DNA of 64,000 nt from assembly GCF_001542875.1 (NCBI RefSeq), contig NZ_LMAF01000002.1, forward strand, positions 372,001-436,000. The letters run 5' to 3'. Below are positions 1 through 31,937 of this stretch, in pieces (the stretch's first letter is position 1; the number at the start of each line of letters is the position of its first letter). The position numbers and the translations under genes were made by a program. The notes below the pieces were generated by a model. That model saw only the letters and a list, made by a program, of their open reading frames with translations, ran no database searches and was not told the origin of the DNA. This DNA is from Erythrobacter sp. YT30 (GTDB lineage: Bacteria > Pseudomonadota > Alphaproteobacteria > Sphingomonadales > Sphingomonadaceae).

Positions 1-1
1 C

Positions 2-826
2 CTGGTGATTGATGATCATTCGAGCGATCAGAGCATGCAATTGGCGCAGGAATGGGCGCGCCGCGATCCGCGAGTAAGAGTATTTCAAACCGCACAGAAC
101 TCAGGTCCGGGCGGTGCACGCAATGTTGGGATCGAGCATATGCGCGGGCGCTGGTATGCAATGCTCGACTGCGACGATGCGTTTGAACCGGAACGATGTC
201 GGAGATTGGTTGACGCGGCGGAATCGTGGGGCGCCGATATGATAGCTGATGACTTACGCGTGTTTGGTGATGAAATTGAAACATGCCGGCACCTCGGCGA
301 TACCTTCCGTCCCCAATCAGACACTATTTCGCTTGAAGCATATTTTGCGGGGACAGTGATGTTCTCATCCGAGCCCAATCTTGGCTTCTTGAAACCCATA
401 ATTCGCCGCGACGCACTCAGCTCTGAACGATACCGCACCGATTTGCGTATTGGCGAAGATGATGAGCTTGTCATCCGTCTCCTGCTAGGCGGTGCGCACT
501 ATGCTTATTTTCCCAAACCGCTTTATCGATATCGCAAGCACGATGCGTCGATCTCACACCGATTGTCAGCGAAAAACAGCGCCCTGATGGTGCAGTCGGA
601 AAAGGATATTCGCGCAAAGGTTCAGGCGGCTGGCAAGGCTTCGAATGCGTATGATGCGCGTTATGCCTCCATCCTTGATGCTGCAGCGTTTTCGCGCAGC
701 ATTGATGCTTTGAAAGCGAAGAGATTCGCAGCGGCTCTTGGCGCTATCATCGAGCGGCCTTCAGCTTTGCGTCATTTTGCAATGCCTATCGCAGCGCGGT
801 GGAGGCGGCTGACGGGCAACGCCTGA
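2..826 (+). CDS. Family 2 glycosyltransferase, 5' end outside window
   Basis: This is the C-terminal part of a GT-A fold glycosyltransferase; the reading frame is open to the window edge, so the true start lies upstream. The first visible residues (L-V-I-D-D-H-S-S-D) match the strand and loop of GT2 enzymes that bind the nucleotide sugar, followed by S-G-P-G-G-A-R-N-V-G and the D-x-D-like metal site L-D-C-D-D at about residue 60. A later G-E-D-D-E-L is in the place of the acceptor-side catalytic acid. It probably adds a sugar to a lipid-linked or exopolysaccharide intermediate at the cytoplasmic face of the membrane. The next gene on the same strand is a polysaccharide-export lipoprotein, which supports an exopolysaccharide role. 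The sugar and acceptor cannot be told. Confidence 0.85.
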   Translation: MVIDDHSSDQSMQLAQEWARRDPRVRVFQTAQNSGPGGARNVGIEHMRGRWYAMLDCDDAFEPERCRRLVDAAESWGADMIADDLRVFGDEIETCRHLGDTFRPQSDTISLEAYFAGTVMFSSEPNLGFLKPIIRRDALSSERYRTDLRIGEDDELVIRLLLGGAHYAYFPKPLYRYRKHDASISHRLSAKNSALMVQSEKDIRAKVQAAGKASNAYDARYASILDAAAFSRSIDALKAKRFAAALGAIIERPSALRHFAMPIAARWRRLTGNA

Positions 827-893
827 CAGACGCACATATTGCGCGAGCGCACGCCGATGATTAAGGCCGCTCGCAACAATTGGAGTGAAGCAC

Positions 894-1466
894 ATGAACA
901 AACGCCATGCCGTGATATGCGCTGCGTCATTGGCCCTGACGGGAAGCCTGGCGGGTTGCGTTGGCGGCACGCCTCCGCTTGCTCTGGATCCGTACGCAAC
1001 CAATGAATATCGGTTGGAAGCGGCAGATCAGTTGCGGATCACCGTCTTCGGTGAACCCGCTCTATCGCGCAATTACGTCATCACGACGGCTGGAGATATC
1101 GCCTTCCCACTGCTCGGTGATGTTCCAGCATCGGGTAAAACCGCGAACGAGTTTTCAGCCTTTCTGACCAGCAAACTTGCCGATGGTTACCTCAATGATC
1201 CGAGGGTCAATGTCGAAGTGCTGAATTTCCGCCCGGTCTACGTCCTCGGCGAAGTCGGACGATCAGGCGAGTTCAAATATAAACCTGAACTCACCGCGCT
1301 TCAGGCTGTCGCGCTCGCAGGTGGATTCACCTATCGCGCCGATCGCCGACGCGTCTTCATCCGGCGCGCGGGCGATGACAAGGAATTCACTTACGAGCTT
1401 GACCAAGGCCGCGCGATTTACCTGCGCCCCGGCGATACGATCCGCGTGGGTGAGCGCTACTTCTAA
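894..1466 (+). CDS. Wza/BexD-type polysaccharide export lipoprotein
   Basis: An outer-membrane-directed lipoprotein of 190 residues. It has a short basic N terminus, a hydrophobic stretch and a lipobox (S-L-A-G-C, Cys at about residue 22). A polysaccharide export domain (Y-R-L-E-A-A-D-Q-L-R-I-T-V-F-G) follows, then a SLBB-type segment (V-Y-V-L-G-E-V-G-R-S-G). Wza-family proteins form the channel through which capsule or exopolysaccharide leaves the cell. At 190 residues it matches the short alphaproteobacterial form rather than the roughly 380-residue E. coli Wza. A GTG at 885 is also in frame, but the GGAG at 882-885 sits correctly only for the ATG at 894, so I chose that. Its stop lies 4 nt from the convergent stop of the nucleotidyltransferase. 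Confidence 0.88.
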   Translation: MNKRHAVICAASLALTGSLAGCVGGTPPLALDPYATNEYRLEAADQLRITVFGEPALSRNYVITTAGDIAFPLLGDVPASGKTANEFSAFLTSKLADGYLNDPRVNVEVLNFRPVYVLGEVGRSGEFKYKPELTALQAVALAGGFTYRADRRRVFIRRAGDDKEFTYELDQGRAIYLRPGDTIRVGERYF

Positions 1467-1470
1467 ACGT

Positions 1471-2529
1471 TCACGTCTTCCAGCGGCGGCTGGCGAACAG
1501 GTCGTGCTGAATATCTGCGAGTGTCACCCAGCCAAGTTCGCGCAGGAATGTGAACGGGCGGATGATACTGCCTTCGCTCCAGCGCCACAGCAGCTTTGAT
1601 CGGTACATGGGGACGGGTTCGGGCAAGAAATTGATGCGGGCCAAATCGATCAGGGCGCGCTCCCGCTTGGCTTTGGAAGCGTCTTCGCCAAACACTGCAT
1701 CGCCCGCCTTCTTCGCATGCTCCCATAGCCTGCTCATGCCTGATTGCGCAGCGTGTTCATCAAGGACGTCATCGGTCATTTCAGGATCGTTTGCGCGGGC
1801 AAACGCGATCTCATGCGCATAGCTCAGCCAAGGTTGGCGCGCTCTGATCGCTTTGCCGAAGCTGTTCGCCGTCAGCATCATCGCATCGCGCTTGTCCAGC
1901 ATGGGAAGCGAGAAATTACCAAGTTGGCGCGTTACCCGGCGCTCATGAAGCGGATCGAGATGTGTAAGCGCTGGTGTTCCGGGCTGGTGCAGCTTGTGGT
2001 GGAGATCGACCGTCGGCCCGGTCGTGTCGACCGGAAGATATGGCGATTCTCCGAGAAAATCGTGCCACCACACATCGCTCTCTGAGATAGGTGCATCATA
2101 GCCGATTTTTGTGAGGACTTTAGCAGCGCCCCGATAGTCTCGGCTGCGAACGAGCAAATCGATGTCATGCGTGAAACGTGCATCCCATTTGCCATAGACC
2201 TCAAAGGCGCGCGCCGTCCCTTTCACACAGATCACATCAATCCCATGCGTGTGGAAATTCCGGCATAATCTAACAGCGGCCGCGATATGCCCCATGGCCT
2301 TTGAAAAGCAATCAGAGCGCATCTGGGCCATGCTTTCCTCAGCTCTGGGTGGCAGCTGAATACCGAGCGACTCGACAGCATGCGACAGCAGCGGAAAGAC
2401 GTTGTTCTGACGTGCGGTGGCCTCCAAGGCCCGCCATTCCGCGTCCTCCAGACCCGAAAACGTCTGTGAAGCGTTGCAAATCCCCGTTGAAAGGAAAGAA
2501 ATCAGAGTCTCTTGTGCTTTCGCTGACAT
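1471..2529 (-). CDS. Family 5 nucleotidyltransferase of the lasso cluster
   Basis: A 352-residue protein of the NTP_transf_5 family. The nucleotidyltransferase core is visible as V-K-G at residues 102-104, Arg118, and H-D-I-D-L-L-V with the metal-binding pair Asp122 and Asp124. Homologues accompany lasso-peptide kinases in the Paenibacillus (paeninodin) and Bacillus pseudomycoides (pseudomycoidin) clusters. In pseudomycoidin, from memory of published work, the homologue was linked to sugar addition on the phosphorylated C terminus. Here it is divergent from the two precursor genes, with 218 nt between the starts. I infer that it acts on the phosphorylated C-terminal Ser; the chemistry in this organism is unknown. 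It could also transfer a nucleotide to another acceptor. Confidence 0.82.
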   Translation of the reverse strand: MSAKAQETLISFLSTGICNASQTFSGLEDAEWRALEATARQNNVFPLLSHAVESLGIQLPPRAEESMAQMRSDCFSKAMGHIAAAVRLCRNFHTHGIDVICVKGTARAFEVYGKWDARFTHDIDLLVRSRDYRGAAKVLTKIGYDAPISESDVWWHDFLGESPYLPVDTTGPTVDLHHKLHQPGTPALTHLDPLHERRVTRQLGNFSLPMLDKRDAMMLTANSFGKAIRARQPWLSYAHEIAFARANDPEMTDDVLDEHAAQSGMSRLWEHAKKAGDAVFGEDASKAKRERALIDLARINFLPEPVPMYRSKLLWRWSEGSIIRPFTFLRELGWVTLADIQHDLFASRRWKT

Positions 2530-2747
2530 TAAAATCGCTTTAGGTTAATAGTTGGGAAAAGGAAACGCTCGGCTGCGAGAAATTTGAGGCGTCATAACCT
2601 CTACGCTGCCAATTGTCCCATTTTGGGATTGCCTCGGGTTCTGGAAATATTGCGATTGCGAAATCGTAAAATTTTTGGAAATCGGGACGCTCACAGTGGG
2701 TTAACTAATTTTTGGATCGATTCGATCTTCTCGACACGGAGCGCTCT
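2530..2747. promoter_or_regulatory. Divergent promoter region of the lasso cluster
   Basis: The 218-nt gap between the nucleotidyltransferase and the first precursor gene must hold promoters for both directions. It is clearly more A/T-rich than its flanks, especially at 2640-2715. A 13-nt palindrome, GATCGA-T-TCGATC, lies at 2715-2727, about 20 nt before the precursor start, and could be an operator or chance. I could not find a convincing -35/-10 pair with 16-18 nt spacing. Confidence 0.4.
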
Positions 2748-2894
2748 ATGAAGAAAGCGTATGAAAAGCCGGCAATTGAAAAGCTGGGTTCGTTTGAAAC
2801 AATGACACAAGCAGCCAATCCCGGCGGCAGCGACGACATGGGATTTGCACGCACAGGCGGCGGCGACGGCCCGCCGGACATGACCTTTTCATAA
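2748..2894 (+). CDS. Lasso peptide precursor A1
   Basis: A 48-residue precursor. The leader (1-21) carries Tyr5, Pro8, Ile10 and Gly14, matching the Y-x-x-P-x-L-x-x-x-G motif that RRE proteins bind. Thr20 is at -2 from the predicted cleavage after Gln21. The predicted core (22-48, 27 residues) starts A-A-N-P-G-G-S-D-D. Asp at core position 9 (residue 30) is the likely macrolactam partner of Ala1, with Asp8 as the alternative. The tail is Gly/Pro-rich, has an Arg at core position 14 and ends D-M-T-F-S. A C-terminal Ser is the site phosphorylated by lasso kinases. An upstream in-frame start at 2712 exists, but CGGAG at 2737-2741 and the match to A2 favour 2748. Core boundaries are inferred from motifs. 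Confidence 0.9.
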   Translation: MKKAYEKPAIEKLGSFETMTQAANPGGSDDMGFARTGGGDGPPDMTFS

Positions 2895-2999
2895 CAATTC
2901 GGGCAGCGGCTGAAAAACTAAAGACAAGGCCGATTACTGCGCGGGAGACCGTGGGTTGCACACATAATCAAACACGAAATTCCGACACGGAGCTGACCA

Positions 3000-3137
3000 A
3001 TGAAAAAGACATACGAAAAGCCTGAGTTTAACAAGCTCGGTTCTTTTGAAGCCATGACAAAAGCTGCTGGCACGGGTGACAACCTTGACCAGGCTTTTCC
3101 AGATGGCACTCCATTCAGCGATCTGACCTTTTCGTAA
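3000..3137 (+). CDS. Lasso peptide precursor A2
   Basis: A second, 45-residue precursor lying 105 nt after A1. Its leader is nearly the same as that of A1: Tyr5, Pro8, Phe10, Gly14, then S-F-E-A-M-T with Thr20 at -2 and Lys21 at -1. The predicted core (22-45, 24 residues) begins A-A-G-T-G-D-N-L-D, so Asp9 again suits an Ala1-Asp9 nine-membered ring (Asp6 is too close). Phe12 and the last three residues T-F-S match A1 while the middle of the core differs. Both genes have the same ribosome-binding stretch GACACGGAGC before the start, so they look like a tandem duplication that diverged in the core. It should share one set of processing enzymes with A1. Confidence 0.9.
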   Translation: MKKTYEKPEFNKLGSFEAMTKAAGTGDNLDQAFPDGTPFSDLTFS

Positions 3138-3158
3138 GGCGATCAATCAGCTATTAAG

Positions 3159-3186
3159 AAAACGGCCGCATTTTGCGGCCGTTTTT
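3159..3186 (+). terminator. Intrinsic terminator between lasso precursors and enzymes
   Basis: A perfect 8-bp GC-rich stem (ACGGCCGC at 3162-3169, GCGGCCGT at 3175-3182) with a 5-nt loop is followed directly by a T run to 3186. It lies 22 nt after the A2 stop and 52 nt before the B1 start. This layout would give abundant precursor mRNA and a smaller amount of read-through into the enzyme operon, as is known for several lasso clusters. Confidence 0.88.
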
Positions 3187-3238
3187 GATGGTGGGCCCAA
3201 AATGTCCGCTGCTGATCTGAAGGTGTATTGACCACACT

Positions 3239-3523
3239 ATGACAATCGACGAAAAACAAGGATTCGTCCGATCCGACCATGTGGTGGTGTGCGAGATAAA
3301 GGATGGCGGGGCGCTGCTTGACCTTGAAACCAGCACCTATTTCCAGCTCAACGGCACCGCCAATTTTATCTGGGAGCAACTGGCCGACGGTCCGATGAGC
3401 GGATCGCAGATTGCCGGTAAACTGTCTCAGACATACGATGTTGACGATGAAACCGCCCTTGCCGACGTCCTTTTCATGCTAGACCAGTTTTCCACTGCAG
3501 GGCTCATCATCGCGCGAGGATAA
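3239..3523 (+). CDS. Lasso B1: PqqD-like leader-recognition protein
   Basis: A 94-residue stand-alone RiPP recognition element of the PqqD family. The fold signature is visible: a three-strand N-terminal segment ending in G-A-L-L-D-L-E-T-S-T-Y-F-Q-L-N, then N-F-I-W-E-Q-L and helices rich in Leu (residues 40-90). B1 proteins hold the precursor leader against the B2 protease by binding its Tyr/Pro motif, which is present in both precursors. The coding sequence ends exactly at the B2 start codon, and its last codons (GAGGATAA) supply the B2 ribosome-binding site, so the two are translationally coupled. Length and position are typical for clusters where B is split into B1 and B2. Confidence 0.93.
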   Translation: MTIDEKQGFVRSDHVVVCEIKDGGALLDLETSTYFQLNGTANFIWEQLADGPMSGSQIAGKLSQTYDVDDETALADVLFMLDQFSTAGLIIARG

Positions 3524-3949
3524 ATGAAGCTGCGGCGATACTGGATATTGGGCAGGCGCCACTTCTTCTTGCTGTGCCGGGCATTGTGCGTCGTCATCTA
3601 TTTTCGGATCGCTTTGTGCTTCGTCAAATACAAGCGCCTTTCTCGATCAATCAGCGTTGCGTCAGAAGGCGACATCCCGTCAGAGCCATCGGCTGGGGCG
3701 ATTGCCTGGGCGGTCAAGAACACATCCCGCATTGTTCCTTTTGCAACTTGCCTCACACAGGCGCTTGCATTGCAGCATATGCTTGGGAAGCGCGGCGAGG
3801 AAGCGGTCATCCGCATTGGCGTCAGGACTAATGGTGCGGGCCGGATCATGGCGCATGCCTGGGTCATTTTTCAGGGCGCAATCCTGATCGGGGGGCCGCA
3901 ATCGAATATTGATCGCTACACCGTGATGACTGATCTGAAACCCGGCTGA
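3524..3949 (+). CDS. Lasso B2: transglutaminase-like leader protease
   Basis: A 141-residue cysteine protease of the lasso B2 family that removes the leader after the -1 residue of the precursor. The catalytic Cys76 sits in the family motif F-A-T-C-L-T-Q-A-L-A, and His111 is in M-A-H-A-W-V. Asp130 near I-D-R-Y could complete the triad, but I am less sure of it. Residues 5-35 are hydrophobic with basic residues, a usual N-terminal helix of B2 proteins that may sit at the membrane. The stop overlaps the start of the cyclase gene (TGATG), so B1, B2 and C are made in step. It must handle Gln and Lys at -1 in the two precursors. Confidence 0.92.
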   Translation: MKLRRYWILGRRHFFLLCRALCVVIYFRIALCFVKYKRLSRSISVASEGDIPSEPSAGAIAWAVKNTSRIVPFATCLTQALALQHMLGKRGEEAVIRIGVRTNGAGRIMAHAWVIFQGAILIGGPQSNIDRYTVMTDLKPG

Positions 3950-5760
3950 TGCCCGGACACCAGATGACAGCATCGCTTGAATGGACATTCTCGGTAAACC
4001 GGAGGGAAGGCAAGGCGGTCTGCCATCACAGCAGTTCTCTTGCCGAAGCCACCGGCGCATTCAGCCACATTGATCCAAACACGGGACTTTGCGTTGCGGG
4101 GATGTGGCGCGCGGACAATGCGGAAGATCTGCGTGCGAAGTTGGACACGGGCGAGAGCTCAGAAACCGCGCCAATCATCAAGGCCGCATGGAATAAGTGG
4201 GGCTTGCAACTGGCCACACATCTTCGCGGACCATTCGCGATTGCGGTGTTCGATCCCAAGACTCACCAGACATACTTGGCGCGTGACGCTTTGGGAGTGG
4301 AGCCGCTCTTCCTAGCGCGCGAGGCATCCACGATTTCCGCGGCATCCTGTCCCCGCGCGGCGCGGCGGGGGGCACAGCTATCCTCGATCCCCGATCTTCA
4401 GATGGTCGCCGATTTCGTACGCGGAGAGATCACGAGCAATAGTGGCACGTTCCACCAAGGGCTGACGCGATTGCCGCCCGGCCACTGGATGGTGATATGC
4501 CCCGATGAAGAAAGATGCGAGCGCTACTGGTCTCTCGAGGCGATTGCCCCCACTGAACCTTCAAGTGATGCAGTAAGCCATTTCCGAGAACTTCTGGCGA
4601 AAGAAACCCGATTGAGCGGCGGATTGGATGACGAACTCGCCGTGCTTCTCAGTGGCGGTCTCGATTCCTCGGCTGTTGCCGCACTGGTCGCTAATATGCG
4701 CAAGCGGGCCCAAGACATCACTACACTCTCGCTCACCTACGAAGGCAACCCGGACTGGGTCGACCGCCCGCACATCGACGCAATGCGCCAAACGCTCGCA
4801 ATGGAACATCGCAGCCTGCCAAGCGGCGCACGCGATCCTTTTGCAGACATGGACGATCTGCTCACCGCATTGGATGGGCCATGCTTTGGTTACGGCGTTT
4901 CGGTCAGCACATCGCTGTTCGAATACGCAAAGGGCCATAACCTCAAAACCGTACTCCACGGACATGGAGGGGATGAGATTGTCTCCTATGGTATCGGCCG
5001 ATTGAACGAGCTGGCCGCTGCGGGTCAATGGCTCACCCTGTGGCGCGAGACAGCCGGGGCCTCTGCTCTTACCCTGCAGCCAAGGTGGAAAATGTTCGAA
5101 CGATATCTGGTGCACCGGTCGGAATGGCGCTGGCTGAAATCAAAGATCAAACGCGAGAAATCTGCCGTTCAAGAGGGTACTGACATACCGGCCGCCGGCA
5201 TGCCGCCTCCTTGCCCACCTGAAGACGACGACCCGCGCCCAATCCAGGCACGTCCCGAACATACTGAGCGAGATGTTCACATCGCAGCACTCTCCAATCC
5301 GCTTCAACCCCATGCACTCGAAACCATAATGCTCACCGGTCGCTTTCATGGTCTCAAGATCGGCATGCCGTTCATGTCGCGCGACTTGGCGGAATTCAGC
5401 GTGTCCCTCCCTTCCCACTGGAAATTGCGCAATGGCTTTACGCGCTATATCCTTCGCGAAGCAATCCGGCCGCTTGTCCCCGCATCAGTAGCGAACCGGC
5501 GTGACAAGAATGATTTTTCGCAGGATTTCGTCAACGGATTTTGCGCGAGCTCTTTTGCCCGTAAATGGGCTGATCCCGATAATCCGGTTCTGACCCAATA
5601 CGTTAGTCGGCAATGGCTCACGGAAAACTGGGCCAAAGTGGAGCGGGAAGGCGCAAACATTTCCATTGCTACCGCTCGCGGGCTATGGCGCGCGGCGGTT
5701 CTGGGACGCTGGCTGGCAATGGATAGGGATGCTGGTATTCTGGCCGAAACGCAGGGGTAA
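3949..5760 (+). CDS. Lasso C: macrolactam synthetase (AsnB-like)
   Basis: A 603-residue ATP-dependent cyclase that adenylates the side-chain carboxylate of the core Asp and joins it to the N-terminal amine of Ala1, closing the ring around the tail. Residues 1-200 form an amidotransferase-like domain lacking the N-terminal catalytic Cys of true asparagine synthetases. Residues 205-600 form the synthetase domain, with the PP-loop S-G-G-L-D-S at 235-240 and H-G-H-G-G-D-E at 337-343. A Pro/Glu/Asp-rich insert near 405-435 probably forms a loop. ATG 3949 overlaps the B2 stop; Met6 is an alternative start. Its place after B1-B2 and the missing Cys rule out a role in asparagine synthesis. Confidence 0.95.
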   Translation: MPGHQMTASLEWTFSVNRREGKAVCHHSSSLAEATGAFSHIDPNTGLCVAGMWRADNAEDLRAKLDTGESSETAPIIKAAWNKWGLQLATHLRGPFAIAVFDPKTHQTYLARDALGVEPLFLAREASTISAASCPRAARRGAQLSSIPDLQMVADFVRGEITSNSGTFHQGLTRLPPGHWMVICPDEERCERYWSLEAIAPTEPSSDAVSHFRELLAKETRLSGGLDDELAVLLSGGLDSSAVAALVANMRKRAQDITTLSLTYEGNPDWVDRPHIDAMRQTLAMEHRSLPSGARDPFADMDDLLTALDGPCFGYGVSVSTSLFEYAKGHNLKTVLHGHGGDEIVSYGIGRLNELAAAGQWLTLWRETAGASALTLQPRWKMFERYLVHRSEWRWLKSKIKREKSAVQEGTDIPAAGMPPPCPPEDDDPRPIQARPEHTERDVHIAALSNPLQPHALETIMLTGRFHGLKIGMPFMSRDLAEFSVSLPSHWKLRNGFTRYILREAIRPLVPASVANRRDKNDFSQDFVNGFCASSFARKWADPDNPVLTQYVSRQWLTENWAKVEREGANISIATARGLWRAAVLGRWLAMDRDAGILAETQG

Positions 5761-5771
5761 CTTCAGACCGT

Positions 5772-6701
5772 ATGACCGCATCAAGCGCCCATTATTACGA
5801 AGCCTTCGGGCTGCTGATCGAAAGCGATTTCCCACTGCACGAATTGCGCACCGGTAAAGCTACACGAGAACCAGATCTCAGCATTCGCAATAACCCGATT
5901 GGCCGCCCTATGCCTACGCGCACAGACGGCGTTGTGATGGATTACTCCGATCCCGATGGCGTGGTGATGGCTTGGCCGGATGTCGCGGGCTTTCGATTTG
6001 CCGACGAGCGGACGATCTGGGCGGAAAAGCCGGAGGCTACGACCGATCGCATGCTGGCCTTTCCACTGCTCGGCCCCGTCATGGCCTGGGCCTTGAACAG
6101 CCTCGGTCTGTTCGTGTTGCATGCGAGCGCTGTCCAGGTGAACGGTCGCACAATTGCCTTTCTGGGTGATAAGCTTGCGGGCAAGTCGACCACCGCTGCG
6201 GCATTCATCCGGGCAGGTCATGCGCTTGTGACCGATGATCTGCTGGCGATTTCGATGGAGAACAGGGAACGGCCGATGTGCCTTCCAGCTTTCCCGCAAG
6301 TCAAACTCGAAGACAAAGCCGCCGAGCAGGTCAGGATTGCAAGCGCAGATGCGCAGCCGCTGGTGATGGAGGGCTTCCCAAAGCGGCAGCATAAGCTTGA
6401 AAGCATGGCCACAGCACCGACCACCATAGATTGCCTTGTGCGATTGGAGCGCGGCAGCGATGCACCTTCGTTCGAACCCTTGCCAGTTCCCGGCGCGATC
6501 GAATGTCTCGCTCGCTATAGCTACATGCCGCGCTTTGCAGATGCGCCTTGGACAAAACAAGACGACCATCGGCATTTCAGCCAATGCGTTGGTCTCGTCG
6601 ATGCGGCGAAGGTGGGCCGCCTACAGGTGCCTGCCGATCTTTTGCGACTTGATGAAACAGTCGAATATGTATCCGAAATGCTGGACGGCTTGCCCGGATG
6701 A
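5772..6701 (+). CDS. Lasso kinase (HPr kinase-like)
   Basis: A 309-residue P-loop kinase related to the C-terminal domain of HPr kinase. Motifs seen are H-A-S-A at 117-120, Walker A G-D-K-L-A-G-K-S-T at 132-140, and L-V-T-D-D-L-L-A-I at 152-160 (Asp155/Asp156, metal and catalysis). A basic K-R-Q-H-K-L at 204-209 may contact phosphate. Members in lasso clusters (PadeK, ThcoK, PsmK) phosphorylate the C-terminal Ser of the precursor. Both precursors here end in Ser, which supports the same reaction. It starts 11 nt after the cyclase and overlaps the exporter by 4 nt. It is unlikely to regulate sugar transport: no HPr gene is near, and the operon context is specific. Confidence 0.9.
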   Translation: MTASSAHYYEAFGLLIESDFPLHELRTGKATREPDLSIRNNPIGRPMPTRTDGVVMDYSDPDGVVMAWPDVAGFRFADERTIWAEKPEATTDRMLAFPLLGPVMAWALNSLGLFVLHASAVQVNGRTIAFLGDKLAGKSTTAAAFIRAGHALVTDDLLAISMENRERPMCLPAFPQVKLEDKAAEQVRIASADAQPLVMEGFPKRQHKLESMATAPTTIDCLVRLERGSDAPSFEPLPVPGAIECLARYSYMPRFADAPWTKQDDHRHFSQCVGLVDAAKVGRLQVPADLLRLDETVEYVSEMLDGLPG

Positions 6702-8482
6702 TTGCTCGCTCGGTCCAGTTCCTGCGCTACATGATGCACCTCACCGAAGGTCGTCTGGCATTCGCAATTGGGCTCAATTTTCTCTCCAGCCTGACAGAAG
6801 GCATTTCGCTATTTCTGCTAATCCCGCTGGTGGCGCTGATAGATGCAAGCGATGCGGCGGGGTTTGAAGCGATCCCCGTGGTCGGCCCTATGCTAGCCGA
6901 GATCAATCCTACGTTGGAAATGCTGCTCGGCGGCTTTCTGGTGCTTATCATCGTGCAGGCCGTGCTGGTGCGCGTGAAGAGCATGTACCTTGCCAGCATC
7001 ATGCAGCGAGCGATTGACAATATGCGGGTGCGTTTCTTCGCGAGCGTTGGCGCGGCGCGTTGGGATGTAGTGCAGCAATCTCGCGTTTCGGACCTTCAGA
7101 ACGTGCTCGTGCAAGAAGCGGGCCGCGCCCATGTCGCAGCAACCAACCTGACGACCCTGCTGCAATCCTTCATATTGGCCGCGACATACTTCCTGCTGGC
7201 GACACTTGTTTCATGGCAGATGGCGCTATTTGCCGCTTTGGCAGGCGTCGTCATGCTGGCTGTGTTGTTTCCGCTAAGACGCAAGGCCACCCAATACGGG
7301 CAAGAGCTTAGTGAGCTTTATCGCGGCGAAAACCAGACACTGCTCGATTTTTTGACCGGTATTCGCGTCGCCAAAAGCTTTGTCGCTGAACCCCGCTACG
7401 CAGATGCATTTGGAACCCGGGTCATGAAGCTGCGCGAAGGGCTTCTTGGTGTGCAAGGCCTCAATGCGACGAGCTCAATGGCGTTTCAGATCCTCAGCGC
7501 TATCGCCGCTGTCATCTTCATTTGGGTGGCGGTTGTGTGGGTTGAGTTGGAGCTCGCCTCGCTCATTATTCTGATCCTTATTTTCCTGCGCCTTGCGCCG
7601 CGTTTCGGGACAATCCAGAACTCAATGCAGGCGCTTCTTGGCAATATGGCAGCCTACGAAAATATCCGCGCGCAGATCGACTATTTTGAAGGATCTGCTG
7701 AGCCGAAGGGCAGTGCAGGCGCCAAGGCACCAACCTTCGCAGATGCCATTCGCTTTGAAGGTGTCTCGCTCACTTACCCCAATTCGAGTGCCCCAGCAGT
7801 CAGCGAAATTGATCTCGAGATTGCGAAGGGAAGATTCACTGCGATCATTGGTCCATCAGGAAGCGGGAAAAGCACGATTGCCGATATGCTGATGGGCTTG
7901 CTCCGTCCGTCAGAAGGCAGGATCACTGTCGATGACACTCCCATCACAGAGGAAATCCGGCGCTTGTGGCGCGGCTCTGTCGCGTTCGTACCGCAAGAGG
8001 CTTTCCTCCTAAACGACACCATTCGTACCAACCTCGCCATCGCCCAACCCGATGCGAGCGATGAAGCGATGTGGGACGCCATTCGCCGCTCCAAAGCGGA
8101 AGAGTTTGTGCGCCAAACACCGAGCGGGCTCGATACAATCGTGGGCGAGCGCGGCACCAAATTATCGGGTGGAGAGCGCCAACGCATTGCCCTTGCAAGA
8201 GCGCTGCTCCGCAATCCTTCGCTGCTGATCCTTGATGAAGCAACGAGCGCGCTCGATTGGGAAAACCAGAAAGCCATCGCCGCTGATATCGAGGCGATGC
8301 GCGGTGATATAACCATCGTCACCATAGCCCACCGGCCATCCATGATCCGCTTTGCCGACGATGTCATCGCGATTGAAGCGGGTAAGGTGGTGGAGCGAGG
8401 TGCATTTGCCGATCTCGCCAAGCGCCCTGGTTCAAGACTGCGCGATATGCTCGAAGGTGAGAATTCGGGCGATACGGTATGA
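6698..8482 (+). CDS. Lasso D: ABC exporter with fused membrane and ATPase domains
   Basis: A 594-residue half-transporter that would work as a homodimer to export the mature lasso peptide and give self-protection. Residues 1-320 hold about six membrane helices of the exporter type. Residues 345-590 hold the ATPase: Walker A G-P-S-G-S-G-K-S-T near 384-392, Q-loop in F-V-P-Q-E-A-F, signature L-S-G-G-E-R-Q near 489, Walker B and D-loop L-L-I-L-D-E-A-T-S-A-L-D, and the switch His in I-A-H-R-P. There is no C39 peptidase domain, as expected since B2 removes the leader. It overlaps the kinase and the following glycosyltransferase by 4 nt on each side (ATGA), a strong sign of one functional unit. Confidence 0.93.
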   Translation: MIARSVQFLRYMMHLTEGRLAFAIGLNFLSSLTEGISLFLLIPLVALIDASDAAGFEAIPVVGPMLAEINPTLEMLLGGFLVLIIVQAVLVRVKSMYLASIMQRAIDNMRVRFFASVGAARWDVVQQSRVSDLQNVLVQEAGRAHVAATNLTTLLQSFILAATYFLLATLVSWQMALFAALAGVVMLAVLFPLRRKATQYGQELSELYRGENQTLLDFLTGIRVAKSFVAEPRYADAFGTRVMKLREGLLGVQGLNATSSMAFQILSAIAAVIFIWVAVVWVELELASLIILILIFLRLAPRFGTIQNSMQALLGNMAAYENIRAQIDYFEGSAEPKGSAGAKAPTFADAIRFEGVSLTYPNSSAPAVSEIDLEIAKGRFTAIIGPSGSGKSTIADMLMGLLRPSEGRITVDDTPITEEIRRLWRGSVAFVPQEAFLLNDTIRTNLAIAQPDASDEAMWDAIRRSKAEEFVRQTPSGLDTIVGERGTKLSGGERQRIALARALLRNPSLLILDEATSALDWENQKAIAADIEAMRGDITIVTIAHRPSMIRFADDVIAIEAGKVVERGAFADLAKRPGSRLRDMLEGENSGDTV

Positions 8483-9717
8483 ATGCGGCCCAGTCCGGTC
8501 GCCCGGTCATCACCATCATAAGCAAACAGCGCGTGGCTGGCGCCTTGAACGGCTCATCAGCGTATCTGATCGCAATTGCCAATTCACTTGCGGAAGTGGG
8601 CTTTGACGTCGAACTGATCCAGCCTTCGCCTGCTATAGCCGGACGCTCTCCATACGTACGAATGCGTCCGGAAATGAGAGTCTTTACCCGGCACTTGGTT
8701 CGGGGAGCTTCTCAAGTAGGTAACTACCTTGTCTTTGCTGATCCATCAGTGCTTTGGGGTGCAGTGAGAGGCATCGCAGCGCGGCTTTCAAAGAGACTAC
8801 CTGTTGCCGCCCTGCACGTTGAGGATAAACCAGCGCCTTACGCCATCGCCACCAAGTGGCTTGATGAGGATCGCGCATTCCTGCGCGCCAATATCTCACC
8901 CGACACGCGCGCAATAATCGCAGATTATATGTTCTGCGCCGAAGGGTTCTGTGAAGGACCCGGCGGGCTTCCGACCGCGATTGTGATGCACGACCTGTTC
9001 CACGCCCGTGCAGGTGGGGACAAAGACTCAGTGGCGCTTGTCACCCGCGAAGAAGAGATCGCTGCCCTTTCAAAAGCGGACAGTGTGTTCGCAATTCAGC
9101 AGAATGAGGAGGCGTTTCTTAAAAACCACGTTCCTGCCACAAATCCCATCCTCGTACCCATGCCCGCCTTCCCTGTGGACGCCCCGCAGCCCGGCATAAA
9201 AGACAAATTGCTCTTTATCGGGAGCAACACCGCGCCCAATGTGGAAGGGTTGAAGGACTTCCTCCTGCAAACGTGGCCGCTAATCCTCGCGCGCCGCCCC
9301 AATGCGAAGCTTGACGTCGCAGGCACCATGAACCGCGCCTTCCCCAACCCCGATTATCGCGGCGTGCGTTTTCTTGGAATCGTGGACGATCTTGCACCGC
9401 TATACCGCGATGCCGGGGTCGTGATATCGCCGCTGACGTTCGGTTCAGGCCTCAAGATCAAGCTTGTCGAAGCGATGGCTCAAGGCAAAGCCATGGTGGT
9501 CTCACCCATAACGCTCCAAGGCGTGGAGGATGTATGCGGTCCCGGCGTAAAGCTTGCTGAAACACCGCAATCGACCGCGAACGCCATTTGCGATTTGATG
9601 GATGATGAAACTGCTCGCACCGATCTAGCAAGCCGCGCGCTTGCCATCGCGAGAGACCACTTCTCTGCGCAAGCCGTCCACGCCGATTTGCGCGCGTGGG
9701 CGCAGAACCTTCTCTAA
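8479..9717 (+). CDS. GT4-type glycosyltransferase coupled to the lasso exporter
   Basis: A 412-residue GT-B fold protein. The C-terminal half has the family 4 layout: L-L-F-I-G-S-N near residue 245, R-F-L-G-I-V-D near 298, and the nucleotide-sugar site G-S-G-L-K-I-K-L-V-E-A-M-A-Q-G-K near 322-337. The N-terminal half begins with I-T-I-I-S-K-Q-R-V-A-G-A-L-N-G-S-S-A-Y-L and has no predicted export signal. ATG 8479 overlaps the exporter stop by ATGA, so it is probably co-translated with lasso genes. It could add sugar to the lasso peptide, or belong to the surrounding exopolysaccharide locus and share a transcript. Its last 4 nt overlap the convergent GH16 gene. Confidence 0.85.
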   Translation: MNAAQSGRPVITIISKQRVAGALNGSSAYLIAIANSLAEVGFDVELIQPSPAIAGRSPYVRMRPEMRVFTRHLVRGASQVGNYLVFADPSVLWGAVRGIAARLSKRLPVAALHVEDKPAPYAIATKWLDEDRAFLRANISPDTRAIIADYMFCAEGFCEGPGGLPTAIVMHDLFHARAGGDKDSVALVTREEEIAALSKADSVFAIQQNEEAFLKNHVPATNPILVPMPAFPVDAPQPGIKDKLLFIGSNTAPNVEGLKDFLLQTWPLILARRPNAKLDVAGTMNRAFPNPDYRGVRFLGIVDDLAPLYRDAGVVISPLTFGSGLKIKLVEAMAQGKAMVVSPITLQGVEDVCGPGVKLAETPQSTANAICDLMDDETARTDLASRALAIARDHFSAQAVHADLRAWAQNLL

Positions 9718-10529
9718 TTGCAGGGCTGACGCTGTTCAAAGCTGGGCGAATAGCTCGCGCATTCAATCACCATCATTGACGGCAATTGAGCCGGATCGAA
9801 CGGTCCCACCCAGTCGGTAAGCGTTCGCGACCCCCAAAGCGACATCATCAATTTCTGGGTGTTGATGGGGAGCGGCAAAGTCTCGCCGCGCGCCTCATGC
9901 GCCAGTTCACCATCGACATACCAGCGGATATAGTCGGGCTGCCAGTCAAAGCCGTAGGAGTGCGTTTCCTTCGTCGCGTCGTAATCGAGCTTGTGGATGT
10001 GCTCTATCTTTTCGCTGTTGCGGAAATAGGTGAACATCACTTCACGCGGCTTTGCGCCAAGGATTTCGACATCGATCTCATCCCATTCCTTGCCGAAGGC
10101 CGGACCCGTGTAGGTAAAAAACCCGCTGACTGTGCCCGATGCAGGCGCAGCGCGCATGCGCACTTCGAAATAGCCGTGGCCGTAATTTTTGTCGCTTTGC
10201 ACTTCAGCGCCGACAAAATTCGCGAGGTTTGTCTTTCGCTGCTCAAGCATCATTTTGAGCGATCCATCAAAACGCACTTGCGACCGGCGCCAGTCATTGA
10301 CTGTCCATTTGCCGTTGCGCCAGCCATGCGAAACGTTCCATCGCGGCTTGTCCAAATTATCGAAAGTATCGACAAACGGCTCACCCCCGCCAACCAGGCG
10401 GGGAGGTGATTTGATTTTTGAAGAGCTAACATCGCTCGGCTGAGAATGGGATTTGAACACCAATGGAAGCCCGGCGAGTGATACGCCAAGCACGATGATA
10501 AGAGGTATCAGAACCCGTCGAATCTCCAT
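9714..10529 (-). CDS. Family 16 glycoside hydrolase (ExoK/ExsH-like)
   Basis: A 271-residue secreted or membrane-anchored endo-glycanase. The first 27 residues form a signal or anchor sequence (basic start, then Ile/Leu/Val-rich). The GH16 active-site motif E-W-D-E-I-D-V-E lies near residues 149-156, with nucleophile Glu, assisting Asp and acid/base Glu intact. F-V-G-A-E-V, the repeated aromatic residues and Y-G-F-D-W-Q-P-D-Y-I-R-W-Y are standard in the jelly-roll fold. ExoK-type enzymes cut newly made exopolysaccharide to set chain length. Its place beside glycosyltransferases and the Wza-like lipoprotein fits that. It is convergent with the GT4 gene. Substrate could be a beta-glucan, succinoglycan-like polymer or galactan. 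Confidence 0.85.
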   Translation of the reverse strand: MEIRRVLIPLIIVLGVSLAGLPLVFKSHSQPSDVSSSKIKSPPRLVGGGEPFVDTFDNLDKPRWNVSHGWRNGKWTVNDWRRSQVRFDGSLKMMLEQRKTNLANFVGAEVQSDKNYGHGYFEVRMRAAPASGTVSGFFTYTGPAFGKEWDEIDVEILGAKPREVMFTYFRNSEKIEHIHKLDYDATKETHSYGFDWQPDYIRWYVDGELAHEARGETLPLPINTQKLMMSLWGSRTLTDWVGPFDPAQLPSMMVIECASYSPSFEQRQPCN

Positions 10530-10622
10530 GATTGCCGAGCTATCAGCAAGTCCGCCTCTTCCTCAACACGCAATCGAGGGAACTCCAGCCAAAGCGGGTT
10601 AACGCTGCGATAGCTGCCCTGA

Positions 10623-11561
10623 TCAGGCCGCGCGCGGTTCGCCAGCTCTTTCGCCGGCAGGAAAGCCACCCGCCCGAATTAGCATGGCCGGGACGCGGCC
10701 CGGTAGCTTATCAGCGAGCCATTGGCCCGCCGTTATCGCGGCATCGAGGTCGAGCCCCGTCTCAAACCCGCCGCGATCCAGCATATAGAGCAAGTCTTCC
10801 AGAGGAATATTGCCCGTCGCCGCAGGTGCAAAAGGGCAGCCTCCAATTCCTCCAAAGCTCGCATCAATAGTTGTGACACCCGACTCTATAGCGGCGAAGG
10901 CATTGGCGATGCCGGTATTGCGCGTGTTGTGGAAGTGAGCGCGGAGAGGGATCTCACCAGTCACATCGCGGACCTTTCCGAACAATTCGCGCACTGACCA
11001 TGGATCACCCACTCCGATCGTATCGGCGAGAGAGATTTCATCCGCACCAGCTTCTGCGGCCATCTTGGCAAGCTCCAACACGTTGTCATGCGGCACTTCG
11101 CCTTCAAATGGGCACCCCCATGACGCAGCTATAGTGACAGAGGCTCGTTTCCCATTCTCTTTGGCGAGAGCGACAATCTCGGCAGCGCTTTCGCCGGAGC
11201 CAATTCGGGTCTGCCCCTGGTTCTTCATCGCAAAAGTCTCCGACGCGACGCAGACAGCACCAAATTCATCAAGATCAGCTGCCAGTGCTCGCTCCGCTCC
11301 GCGCAGATTAAGCACTAGGCCGATATATTCGACACCCTCGCGGCGAGGCATCTGTTCGCACAGCGCATCGGCATCCGCCATTTGCGGCACGCGCTTGGGA
11401 TTGACGAAGCTTGTTACCTCGACCCGCGTGACGCCTGCCGCCAGCCCGAGATCAATGAGCTCCAGCTTCTCCTCAGTTGAAAACACGCGCTGCTCGTTCT
11501 GAAGCCCATCGCGGGGGCTTACATCGACGATGGTGATATCGGGTTTGTTGGAGGAGATCAT
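10623..11561 (-). CDS. HMG-CoA lyase-like enzyme of the hyu operon
   Basis: A 312-residue TIM-barrel carbon-carbon lyase of the HMGL family, which cuts 3-hydroxyacyl-CoA compounds into acetyl-CoA and a keto product. Seen are V-D-V-S-P-R-D-G-L-Q-N-E near residues 9-20 (metal Asp and catalytic Arg), H-F-H-N-T-R-N-T-G near 205 (metal His pair), and the signature G-G-C-P-F-A-P-A-A-T-G-N with active-site Cys. The frame extends upstream to 11642, but the ATG at 11561 follows the GntR stop by 4 nt and is preceded by AGGA, so it is the likely start. Last gene of the operon. The substrate could be HMG-CoA, citramalyl-CoA or another 3-hydroxy-3-methyl diacid. Confidence 0.85.
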   Translation of the reverse strand: MISSNKPDITIVDVSPRDGLQNEQRVFSTEEKLELIDLGLAAGVTRVEVTSFVNPKRVPQMADADALCEQMPRREGVEYIGLVLNLRGAERALAADLDEFGAVCVASETFAMKNQGQTRIGSGESAAEIVALAKENGKRASVTIAASWGCPFEGEVPHDNVLELAKMAAEAGADEISLADTIGVGDPWSVRELFGKVRDVTGEIPLRAHFHNTRNTGIANAFAAIESGVTTIDASFGGIGGCPFAPAATGNIPLEDLLYMLDRGGFETGLDLDAAITAGQWLADKLPGRVPAMLIRAGGFPAGERAGEPRAA

Positions 11562-11565
11562 GATA

Positions 11566-12255
11566 TCAGTCCTGCTTTGAAAAATAGCTGTTCGCAGCGG
11601 CGCGGATATGAACTTGCATGATCGAATCCGCCAGCTGCGCATCCCGGTTGCGAAGGGCTTCGATCAGCTCGCGGTGGTGCTCATTGCTGCGGCGCAGATC
11701 GGCTCTCGAATAATGATCAGCCGTCCTTGAAACGATGGCCGGCGCGATGAGATTGCCCAGAGTGGCACTTAATCGGGGGCTGTCGGCTGCCTCCAGAATA
11801 GCGCGGTGGAAGGCGGTGTTGTCAGCGAGAAACTGTGCAACGTCGGGTTCGGGTTCGGCGTTCACAGCCATGTCGATCCGCTCGACACACTGTTCCAGGT
11901 GGGCAAGGCATGCCTCATCTCGGCGCGAAGCCGCGCGCGCCGCTGCCATACCTTCCAGCAAAGCGCGCATGTGGAACAAGTCTTCGATATCCTGCCGTTT
12001 CCAAACGGCCACCTGCGCGCCCTGATTAGGCCGGATCACGACGAAGTATTCTGCAGCCAGACGGCGCAAGGCATCGCGCACAGGCGTTCGGCTGACCCCG
12101 CAAAGACGTGACAATTCTTCCTCGCTCAGCCGATCTCCAGGTTTGTACTGTCCGCCAAGGATCAGCCCGCCTATGGTGTCATACGCACGATCTGCGGCTT
12201 TGGAGAGCGTGGGCTTTCCATTGTCATCGTTTGCGGGGGAATGCCGGGTTGCCAT
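11566..12255 (-). CDS. GntR/FCD-family transcription regulator
   Basis: A 229-residue regulator of the FadR subgroup. Residues 20-85 form the winged helix-turn-helix (K-P-G-D-R-L-S-E-E-E-L-S-R-L-C-G-V-S-R-T-P-V-R-D-A-L). Residues 95-225 form the all-helical FCD ligand domain, with its metal ligands seen as Asp in A-D-N-T-A-F-H-R-A-I, His in the same helix, and His in N-E-H-H-R-E-L-I-E-A-L and V-H-I-R-A-A. FCD regulators usually bind a carboxylate and release DNA. It sits inside the catabolic operon, between the CoA-transferase and lyase genes. Probable targets are the TGTATACA palindromes upstream of hyuA and of the divergent TonB receptor. It is most likely a repressor relieved by the pathway substrate. 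Confidence 0.9.
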   Translation of the reverse strand: MATRHSPANDDNGKPTLSKAADRAYDTIGGLILGGQYKPGDRLSEEELSRLCGVSRTPVRDALRRLAAEYFVVIRPNQGAQVAVWKRQDIEDLFHMRALLEGMAAARAASRRDEACLAHLEQCVERIDMAVNAEPEPDVAQFLADNTAFHRAILEAADSPRLSATLGNLIAPAIVSRTADHYSRADLRRSNEHHRELIEALRNRDAQLADSIMQVHIRAAANSYFSKQD

Positions 12256-31085: not shown

Positions 31086-31937
31086 ATGAAAGTCACCACG
31101 AAAACCTGGACCACACTTGGGCTTGCGACAGCGCTCGCGGGCGCAGGTCTTGCCGGATGCTCAGGCGAAGCTGGCAGCAGTGGCGAAGGCGGTGAGGCAG
31201 CCCAAAGCGGCGAATCTGGCGCCGGTGGTGAAGGCGAAGGCGGCGAAGGTGCTGGCGGAGAGGGCGAAGGCGCTGGCGGAGAAGGTGAAGGTGGCGTCTC
31301 CGTGGGTGCTGCGGGCACTGATCCCGTGGTATATAGATCAGCCCTCGCCATTGCTGAGGCGCACGTGATCGCCGCACGCGATGCGTTTGCAGCCGGCAAC
31401 ACAGAGGCCGCAGCCGAGATGTTCGGGCACCCCGTTTCTGAAGTTCTTGCTGATCTAGACCCTGTGTTTGAAGAGCTTGGCGTTGAAGATATGAAGCCGA
31501 TGTTTAACGCAGCGTCTCAAGGTGTTCTCAACGGTGAAGATGCGGCGAAAGTCAACGAGCGTGCCGACGAGATCATCGCCGCTCTAAGGGCCGCAGCAGC
31601 CAAAGCGCCTGACGACGGTACCAGCGCAGCTATGATCGCAGCAGGCGTTGCATCCGACCAGATTGAGCGCGCAGCCGATATGTATGGCGAAGCAGTGGAG
31701 GGCAAAATTTACGGTCCCTATCTTGACGGCTATGGCTTTTATAAGTCAGCCGAAGCTGCCTTTGATGGGTCATCGGATGCAATTGCTGCTGAAAATGCTG
31801 ACCTAGCAGGAAAGATCACCGCTGCCCTTGGGCTGCTTGGCAAAGCCTATCTAAGTGCAGAACTTCCCGAAAACCTCGATGCCAATCAAGGTGAATTACA
31901 GGGCGCGTCTTCCGCAGTCATGCTGGCGACAAGCTAG
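31086..31937 (+). CDS. Lipoprotein with Gly/Glu-rich linker, unknown function
   Basis: A 283-residue lipoprotein not recognised beyond its architecture. A signal with lipobox L-A-G-C (Cys25) is followed by about 45 residues made almost wholly of Gly, Glu, Ala and Ser in loose G-E-G repeats. A predicted all-helical domain (residues 78-283) follows, with A-I-A-E-A-H-V-I-A-A-R-D-A-F, P-V-S-E-V-L-A-D-L-D-P and I-Y-G-P-Y-L-D-G-Y-G-F-Y. The acidic linker would hold the helical domain away from the membrane. The helical bundle vaguely recalls imelysin or EfeO-type periplasmic proteins, but I cannot see their metal motif. Divergence from a PiuC-type gene makes an iron-linked role possible but unproven. 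Confidence 0.7.
   Translation: MKVTTKTWTTLGLATALAGAGLAGCSGEAGSSGEGGEAAQSGESGAGGEGEGGEGAGGEGEGAGGEGEGGVSVGAAGTDPVVYRSALAIAEAHVIAARDAFAAGNTEAAAEMFGHPVSEVLADLDPVFEELGVEDMKPMFNAASQGVLNGEDAAKVNERADEIIAALRAAAAKAPDDGTSAAMIAAGVASDQIERAADMYGEAVEGKIYGPYLDGYGFYKSAEAAFDGSSDAIAAENADLAGKITAALGLLGKAYLSAELPENLDANQGELQGASSAVMLATS

What the first reader, a model, noticed from the sequence alone, without database searches (positions are those of the whole stretch)
1471..9717. Two-precursor lasso cluster with kinase, nucleotidyltransferase and coupled glycosyltransferase
Seen directly: two short precursors with the RRE-binding leader motif, split B1/B2, a cyclase without the amidotransferase Cys, an HPr-kinase-like protein, an ABC exporter, a GT4 protein and a divergent family-5 nucleotidyltransferase. 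Known from family work (paeninodin, pseudomycoidin, from memory): the kinase phosphorylates the C-terminal Ser and the nucleotidyltransferase homologue was tied to later sugar addition. Inference: the product is a phosphorylated, possibly glycosylated lasso peptide. The known kinase clusters that I recall are mostly from Firmicutes; a version with a GT4 gene inside the operon in an alphaproteobacterium appears unusual.
Basis: partly seen in the sequence, partly recalled or inferred. Interest (0 to 1): 0.93.

Follow-up and report, generated by a model that had tools for sequence, protein, structure and literature searches.

The report
Phospho-lasso peptide cassette inside exopolysaccharide locus
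This bacterial DNA carries a gene cassette predicted to make two knot-shaped (lasso) peptides that are likely phosphorylated and likely sugar-tagged; the cassette sits among genes for the cell's sugar coat here and in nearly all the related loci examined, so the peptides may work together with the coat, and the neighbouring glycosyltransferase is more likely a coat-building enzyme than part of the peptide pathway.

Summary
In detail: window 1471-8482 holds a complete lasso-peptide cassette of the paeninodin/pseudomycoidin kind: nucleotidyltransferase-fold protein N (divergent), precursors A1 and A2, B1, B2, C, HPr-kinase-like K, exporter D. Both precursors keep Thr(-2), Asp9 and C-terminal Ser; K keeps its His/Lys/Ser/Asp/Asp residues. 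Kinase-bearing lasso cassettes are common in Alphaproteobacteria: 80 related loci were fetched, 64 titled Mesorhizobium. The GT4 gene is not a constant cassette gene: a homologue lies near only 4 of these 80, and elsewhere it sits among exopolysaccharide (EPS) genes without such a cassette. The new point is the setting. The window's cassette lies inside an EPS locus, and 78 of 80 relatives have an EPS marker gene within about 10 kb, against 0 of 20 lasso loci without this kinase and 4 of 20 with a distant kinase. A 2026 paper reports similar co-localisation with capsule loci in Bacilli (PMC13381572). One precursor was found in 79 of 80 relatives; this window has two. No product has been seen; phosphorylation, glycosylation and any role with EPS are inferred.

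The parts
1471..2529 (-). N: nucleotidyltransferase-fold protein, 352 aa, divergent from the precursors
2748..2894 (+). A1: lasso precursor, predicted core AANPGGSDDMGFARTGGGDGPPDMTFS
   Evidence: divergent second copy that keeps Thr(-2), Asp9 and C-terminal Ser
3000..3137 (+). A2: lasso precursor, predicted core AAGTGDNLDQAFPDGTPFSDLTFS
   Evidence: the form shared with relatives
3160..3184 (+). strong stem-loop followed by T run between A2 and B1
   Evidence: fold z-score -5.2 for 3150-3196; stem found; not listed by the simple terminator scan
3239..3523 (+). B1: PqqD-like leader-binding protein
   Evidence: PF05402 66.7 bits
3524..3949 (+). B2: leader peptidase
   Evidence: NF033537 85.4 bits; only B2 match in the genome
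3949..5760 (+). C: lasso cyclase, asparagine-synthetase-like, with SGGLDS motif
   Evidence: PF00733 132.6 bits; sequence
5772..6701 (+). K: HPr-kinase-like precursor kinase
   Evidence: PF07475 27.3 bits, under cut-off 33.3; H117, K138, S139, D155, D156 invariant in 9 of 9
6698..8482 (+). D: ABC exporter
   Evidence: PF00005/PF00664
8479..9717 (+). GT4 glycosyltransferase, read as a gene of the surrounding EPS locus, not of the cassette
   Evidence: PF13692 73.7 bits; contexts
885..1466 (+). polysaccharide-export protein (Wza-like), EPS locus
   Evidence: PF02563 82.0 bits
5..826 (+). GT2 glycosyltransferase (cut by the window's start), EPS locus
   Evidence: PF00535 77.5 bits
9714..10529 (-). 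GH16 glycanase resembling ExoK/BglS, EPS locus
   Evidence: PF00722 112.6 bits; NF052392 197.6 bits, under its cut-off 350

Best explanation
The window carries a complete lasso-peptide cassette (N, A1, A2, B1, B2, C, K, D) set inside an exopolysaccharide (EPS) locus, predicted to make two lasso peptides that are likely phosphorylated on the C-terminal serine and likely glycosylated through N, while the GT4 protein probably builds the EPS. Predicted route: B1 presents the leader; K phosphorylates the C-terminal Ser of the linear precursor; B2 cuts one residue after the leader Thr(-2); C closes a nine-residue ring between the N-terminal amine and Asp9; N adds a hexose or hexose-phosphate to the phosphate, using sugar nucleotides that the EPS pathway also uses; D exports the product. 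Shown here: the genes, their motifs, the conserved Asp9 and terminal Ser, and the recurrent EPS setting. Inferred: every enzymatic step, the order of steps, and that the EPS setting is functional (a peptide that acts on, in or with the extracellular matrix) and not mere neighbourhood; this last inference is the weakest and is weighed as a rival below.
For: Family matches. Precursor alignment: Thr(-2), Asp9 and C-terminal Ser invariant in 10 of 10, i.e. the two of the window and eight relatives; across the fetched loci one precursor in 79 of 80, 79 of 79 ending in Ser and 79 of 79 with Asp at core position 9 (37 distinct cores). Kinase residues invariant in 9 of 9. Cassette content in 80 loci: C 80, K 80 (by construction), B1 79, B2 79, D 79, N 75, GT4 4. 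EPS marker (export protein, Wzz/Wzc, sugar-phosphate transferase, flippase or polymerase at 50 bits or more) within about 10 kb: 78 of 80; the two without are on short contigs (L111 11,062 bp, L116 4,467 bp). Controls: 0 of 20 and 4 of 20. Counting 9 taxa as units (L116 dropped as too short), 9 of 9 against 0 of 20 gives Fisher p about 1e-7, against 4 of 20 p about 7e-5. Marker seeds were checked by Pfam. In the sample of 396 genomes of the order, 7 of 7 genomes with K at E<=1e-30 have a Wza homologue 3-30 kb from K (coordinates). Literature passages: PMC9266682, PMC10368454, PMC13381572, PMC8498205.
Against: No product or transcript is known for this locus. K lies below Pfam's cut-off. Lasso kinases differ in target: BsfK phosphorylates Ser3, so the C-terminal site rests on conservation. 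Deleting lppN, an N-like gene, changed no visible product in a Bacillus host. 64 of the 80 loci are titled Mesorhizobium, i.e. mostly one lineage, and the control loci come from Sphingomonadales only and were hand-picked. GT4 co-occurs with this kinase more than expected (p = 0.011 among 27 genomes with a close Wza), which argues for some link.
Confidence: 0.78

Rival explanations
1. The GT4 protein is a tailoring enzyme of the lasso pathway and adds the sugar to the (phospho)peptide.
For: Its start codon overlaps the stop of D. Next to D on the same strand also in G295 and G100. Co-occurrence with this kinase: 5 of 7 kinase genomes against 4 of 389 others among 396 (p = 3e-8), and 5 of 7 against 3 of 20 among 27 genomes with a Wza match at E<=1.1e-44 (p = 0.011, hand-tabulated). 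[quoted passage not shown]
Against: Without a cassette of this kind in the stretch, it lies beside EPS glycosyltransferases in G340 and G407 and near them in G241; fused to a GT2 in G241 and G311; in G288 on the EPS strand next to Wza, opposite to the cassette; about 8 kb from K in G373; at 200 bits or more near only 4 of 80 cassettes, and not in L045, a member of the window's own kinase clade.
Confidence: 0.15
2. The EPS setting is only neighbourhood: EPS loci are variable regions that collect cassettes, and the lasso peptide is an ordinary antimicrobial or signal with no tie to EPS. (This rivals only the last inference of the best explanation.)
For: EPS loci are often variable (recalled); flanking gene order differs between lineages, as repeated insertion would give; no experiment links the two.
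Against: 78 of 80 loci against 0 of 20 lasso loci without this kinase; the link is also reported in Bacilli, with synchronous up-regulation of lasso and EPS genes in Paenibacillus alginolyticus (PMC13381572).
Confidence: 0.4
3. A1 is a decaying duplicate and only A2 yields product.
For: 79 of 80 relatives show a single precursor and none shows two with the pattern used, which finds both in the window; the A1 core is diverged and longer.
Against: A1 keeps the leader motif, Thr(-2), Asp9 and TFS end and has no internal stop.
Confidence: 0.3

Closest known systems
Paeninodin-type phosphorylated lasso clusters (PadeK, ThcoK; SyanK of Sphingobium yanoikuyae)
   Same: lasso core genes, HPr-kinase-like K with the His-Lys-Asp-Asp residues, precursor with C-terminal Ser (PMC9266682, passages)
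   Different: here two precursors and N on the opposite strand, inside an EPS locus; the sequences of PadeK, ThcoK and SyanK were not compared here
Pseudomycoidin cluster (PsmK, PsmN)
   Same: kinase plus nucleotidyltransferase-like protein; PsmN needed for one or two hexoses on the phosphorylated Ser (PMC9266682, passages)
   Different: Bacillus origin; the two N proteins were not compared here by sequence; no product known here
bsf cluster of Bradymonas sediminis (BsfK, BsfN)
   Same: A, B1, B2, C, D, K, N gene set (PMC10368454, passages)
   Different: BsfK phosphorylates Ser3, leader has Ile(-2), precursor ends in Asp
Linear polyphosphorylated peptides (LPP) and paeninodin-like clusters of Bacilli near capsule loci (PMC13381572, passages)
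   Same: kinase + N + MsbA-like exporter, often near polysaccharide genes; biofilm role speculated there
   Different: LPPs lack a cyclase; Bacillota, not Alphaproteobacteria

Membership tests
lasso peptide gene cluster | precursor with leader motif and Thr(-2) | tested here: met
   10 of 10 in alignment; NF033521 hits, A1 over and A2 just under cut-off
lasso peptide gene cluster | B1, B2 and cyclase C without catalytic Cys | tested here: met
lasso peptide gene cluster | Asp or Glu at core position 7-9 for the ring (rule recalled) | tested here: met
   Asp9 in A1 and A2; 79 of 79 precursors of relatives
lasso peptide gene cluster | threaded product | not testable with these tools
   needs mass spectrometry and NMR
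paeninodin-type phosphorylated lasso | kinase with His-Lys-Asp-Asp residues | tested here: met
   H117, K138, D155, D156 invariant in 9 of 9; motif from PMC9266682
paeninodin-type phosphorylated lasso | C-terminal Ser in precursor | tested here: met
   A1, A2; 79 of 79 precursors of relatives
paeninodin-type phosphorylated lasso | phosphorylation of that Ser | not testable with these tools
   no enzyme assay possible
pseudomycoidin-type (phosphoglycosylated) | nucleotidyltransferase-like N in the cluster | tested here: met
   PF14907, nucleotidyltransferase fold; N in 75 of 80 relatives
pseudomycoidin-type (phosphoglycosylated) | hexose on the phosphate | not testable with these tools
   no product
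lasso cluster with its own glycosyltransferase | glycosyltransferase conserved with the cassette | tested here: not met
   GT4 near 4 of 80 cassettes; EPS context without such a cassette

The most novel reading that the evidence does not exclude
A family of phospho-lasso peptides is a standing component of exopolysaccharide loci across several orders of Alphaproteobacteria, including the symbiotic rhizobia Mesorhizobium: N joins the peptide's phosphorylated tail to a sugar or glycan drawn from the EPS pathway, and the tagged peptide is built into or governs the extracellular matrix.
Probability: 0.2. Interest if true: 0.9.

Novelty: new member of a known kind. Interest (0 to 1): 0.6.

Why it matters
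The biological role of paeninodins is unknown (PMC13381572, passage). A cassette tied to EPS loci in Alphaproteobacteria, far from the Bacilli for which the link is in print, makes a role in the matrix directly testable, and in tractable hosts such as Mesorhizobium, where EPS matters for legume symbiosis (recalled).

Tried and rejected
GT4 as a cassette gene: rejected after the context comparison, though its co-occurrence with the kinase is told. 'Unusual in an alphaproteobacterium': rejected. Terminator between A2 and B1 as a conserved feature: a hairpin with T run follows the precursor in only 4 of 79 relatives, against 4 of 200 random pieces; kept as a local feature only. An inverted repeat of 31 nt, 77% (6682-6712 / 9650-9680) lies in coding sequence and was taken as chance. 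Promoter-like sites: 4, against 3.9 in shuffles. Rfam, window 1-12000: no match at gathering score. PDB by sequence: K matches only HPr kinase entries, over 46-56 residues; N has no convincing match. Fold search of N: best rows are nucleotidyltransferases (MenT1, ANT(2''), LnuA) and, lower, FKRP, an enzyme that moves a polyol phosphate (function recalled); this suggests but does not show a sugar-phosphate transfer. My first precursor pattern missed the Mesorhizobium precursors and was widened after reading some of them, so the count of 79 is partly by choice of the leader pattern; the Ser and Asp9 were not in the pattern. The overlap-filtered counts printed (K 70, B2 60) are too low because overlapping frames were dropped; one search recounts without that filter. 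The kinase tree used 35 of 86 kinase rows (Mesorhizobium thinned) and has long branches and open forks; only the six-row clade of the window (100/99) is used.

Full report
What is there. From 1471 to 8482 it holds a lasso-peptide cassette: N on the minus strand, then A1, A2, B1, B2, C, K and D on the plus strand. From B1 to GT4 the genes follow one another with short overlaps or gaps of up to about 12 bases. The genome has no other B2 match. Lasso clusters as such are common in the order: B2 matches in 191 of 396 genomes; this kinase clade (E<=1e-30) is rare there, 7 of 396.

Precursors. A1 and A2 share the leader MKKxYEKPxxxKLGSFExMT. Taking the leader Thr as residue -2 gives cores with Asp at position 9 and Ser at the end. 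Eight relatives from the order show the same, and 79 of 79 precursors found in 79 of 80 fetched loci end in Ser and have Asp9 (the one locus without, L118, starts inside C). The core of A2 (AAGTGDNLDQAFPDGTPFSDLTFS) is the common form, e.g. GGGGSTALDASFPAHTPIGELTFS in Mesorhizobium amorphae. A1 is a divergent second copy. None of the 80 loci shows two precursors with the pattern used, so the two-precursor state looks local.

The GT4 gene. A homologue at E<=1e-30 occurs in 9 of 396 genomes of the order, the window's included. I read the surroundings of the other eight, plus G027. Cassette next to GT4, same strand: G295, G100. Cassette next to GT4, opposite strand: G288, where GT4 follows GT2 and the export gene. 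Cassette about 8 kb away: G373, G027. No cassette of this kind in the stretch: G340, G407, G241, G311. In G340 GT4 stands next to two glycosyltransferases whose homologues lie upstream of the window in its own genome (48% and 53% identity); in G241 and G311 it is fused to a GT2. It is near 4 of the 80 kinase loci. So GT4 is best read as an EPS gene that lies beside the cassette in a few relatives. Against this: GT4 and the kinase co-occur (5 of 7 kinase genomes against 4 of 389 others; and 5 of 7 against 3 of 20 when only the 27 genomes with a close Wza are taken, p = 0.011; hand-tabulated, tested). Close kinship may explain it, but I did not test that.

The EPS setting. On the left of the cassette lie GT2 and a Wza-like export protein. 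In the 20 kb before the window lie a glycosyltransferase and a flippase (Pfam), further GT2-like genes (BLAST), and genes that look by eye like a Wzz/Wzc protein and sulfotransferases (not tested). On the right lie GT4 and a GH16 glycanase. The one scan of genome contigs with the kinase alignment gave 80 kept loci of 107 confirmed: 64 titled Mesorhizobium, the rest Erythrobacter, Sphingomonas ursincola, Porphyrobacter, a Hyphomonadaceae bacterium, Asticcacaulis, Pseudaestuariivita, Roseobacter and five further records without a genus. With one set of marker seeds, 78 of 80 have an EPS marker within about 10 kb (64 of 64 Mesorhizobium, 14 of 16 others; L111 and L116 are on contigs of 11 and 4.5 kb), and 73 of 80 have two different ones. 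In M. amorphae the order is ExoK (NF052392, 439.8 bits, above cut-off), GT2, N, then A-B1-B2-C-K-D, then a PF02397 sugar transferase, an export protein and a Wzy-like protein. Controls, same seeds, all from Sphingomonadales: 20 lasso loci hand-picked from the upper part of the list with no kinase hit within 15 kb, 0 of 20 (three of them show a weak K match of 30-37 bits); 20 hand-picked lasso loci with a weaker kinase hit (E above 1e-25) within 15 kb, 4 of 20. Limits: one lineage dominates the test set; seeds come from this order, and one polymerase seed comes from L032, the same region as L044 (which has other markers too); controls were not drawn at random, do not come from Rhizobiales, were centred on B2 and not on K, and two of the 40 were cut by contig ends (L137, L145).

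Literature. Passages of PMC13381572 say that paeninodins and LPPs often co-localise with capsular polysaccharide loci in Bacilli, that the lasso, lpp and an EPS gene of P. alginolyticus rise together in stationary phase, that the N-like LppN may need a partner from outside the core cluster, and that a biofilm role is untested speculation. My searches for 'lasso peptide' with 'exopolysaccharide' (20 of 23 listed, 15 of 785 listed), with 'Mesorhizobium' (6 of 6 listed) and with 'capsular polysaccharide' or 'paeninodin' (15 of 102 listed) showed no other paper whose title or abstract start reports this link in Alphaproteobacteria. The lists were capped, only titles and abstract starts were seen, the library lacks most subscription papers, and the primary papers on paeninodin, pseudomycoidin and the iteratively glycosylated lasso peptide were not held.

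Judgement. The finding is real. Its chemistry is that of a known kind; its claimed oddities (alphaproteobacterial host, coupled GT4) do not hold up, and a different regularity, residence of the cassette in EPS loci, takes their place.

Noticed in passing
L021 12705-12896, L022 9102-9260, L033 4583-4741, L038 12937-13098, L103 7190: A sister group of precursors has two Cys, one at core position 4 in the ring and one in the tail (LTCG...S), which would allow a ring-to-tail disulfide in addition to the terminal Ser.
   Followed up: partly
window 3160-3184: Strong GC-rich hairpin with T run between A2 and B1 (fold z -5.2), similar ones after the precursor in L043, L044 and L112; it could hold down enzyme expression relative to precursor.
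   Followed up: partly
L036 8574-10862 and L037 9703-11916: Homologues of GT2 and GT4 of the window's EPS locus are fused into one protein of 762 and 737 aa in two relatives.
   Followed up: partly
L060 4249-5292 and other Mesorhizobium loci: A GT2-family gene lies directly behind N on the same strand in nearly all listed Mesorhizobium loci and could be N's partner there.
   Followed up: no
L142-L161: Sphingomonadales lasso clusters often carry a more distant HPr-kinase-like protein; of 20 hand-picked ones, 4 had an EPS marker nearby.
   Followed up: partly
window 31086-31937: ORF with a long Gly/Glu-rich low-complexity stretch after a lipoprotein-like start.
   Followed up: no
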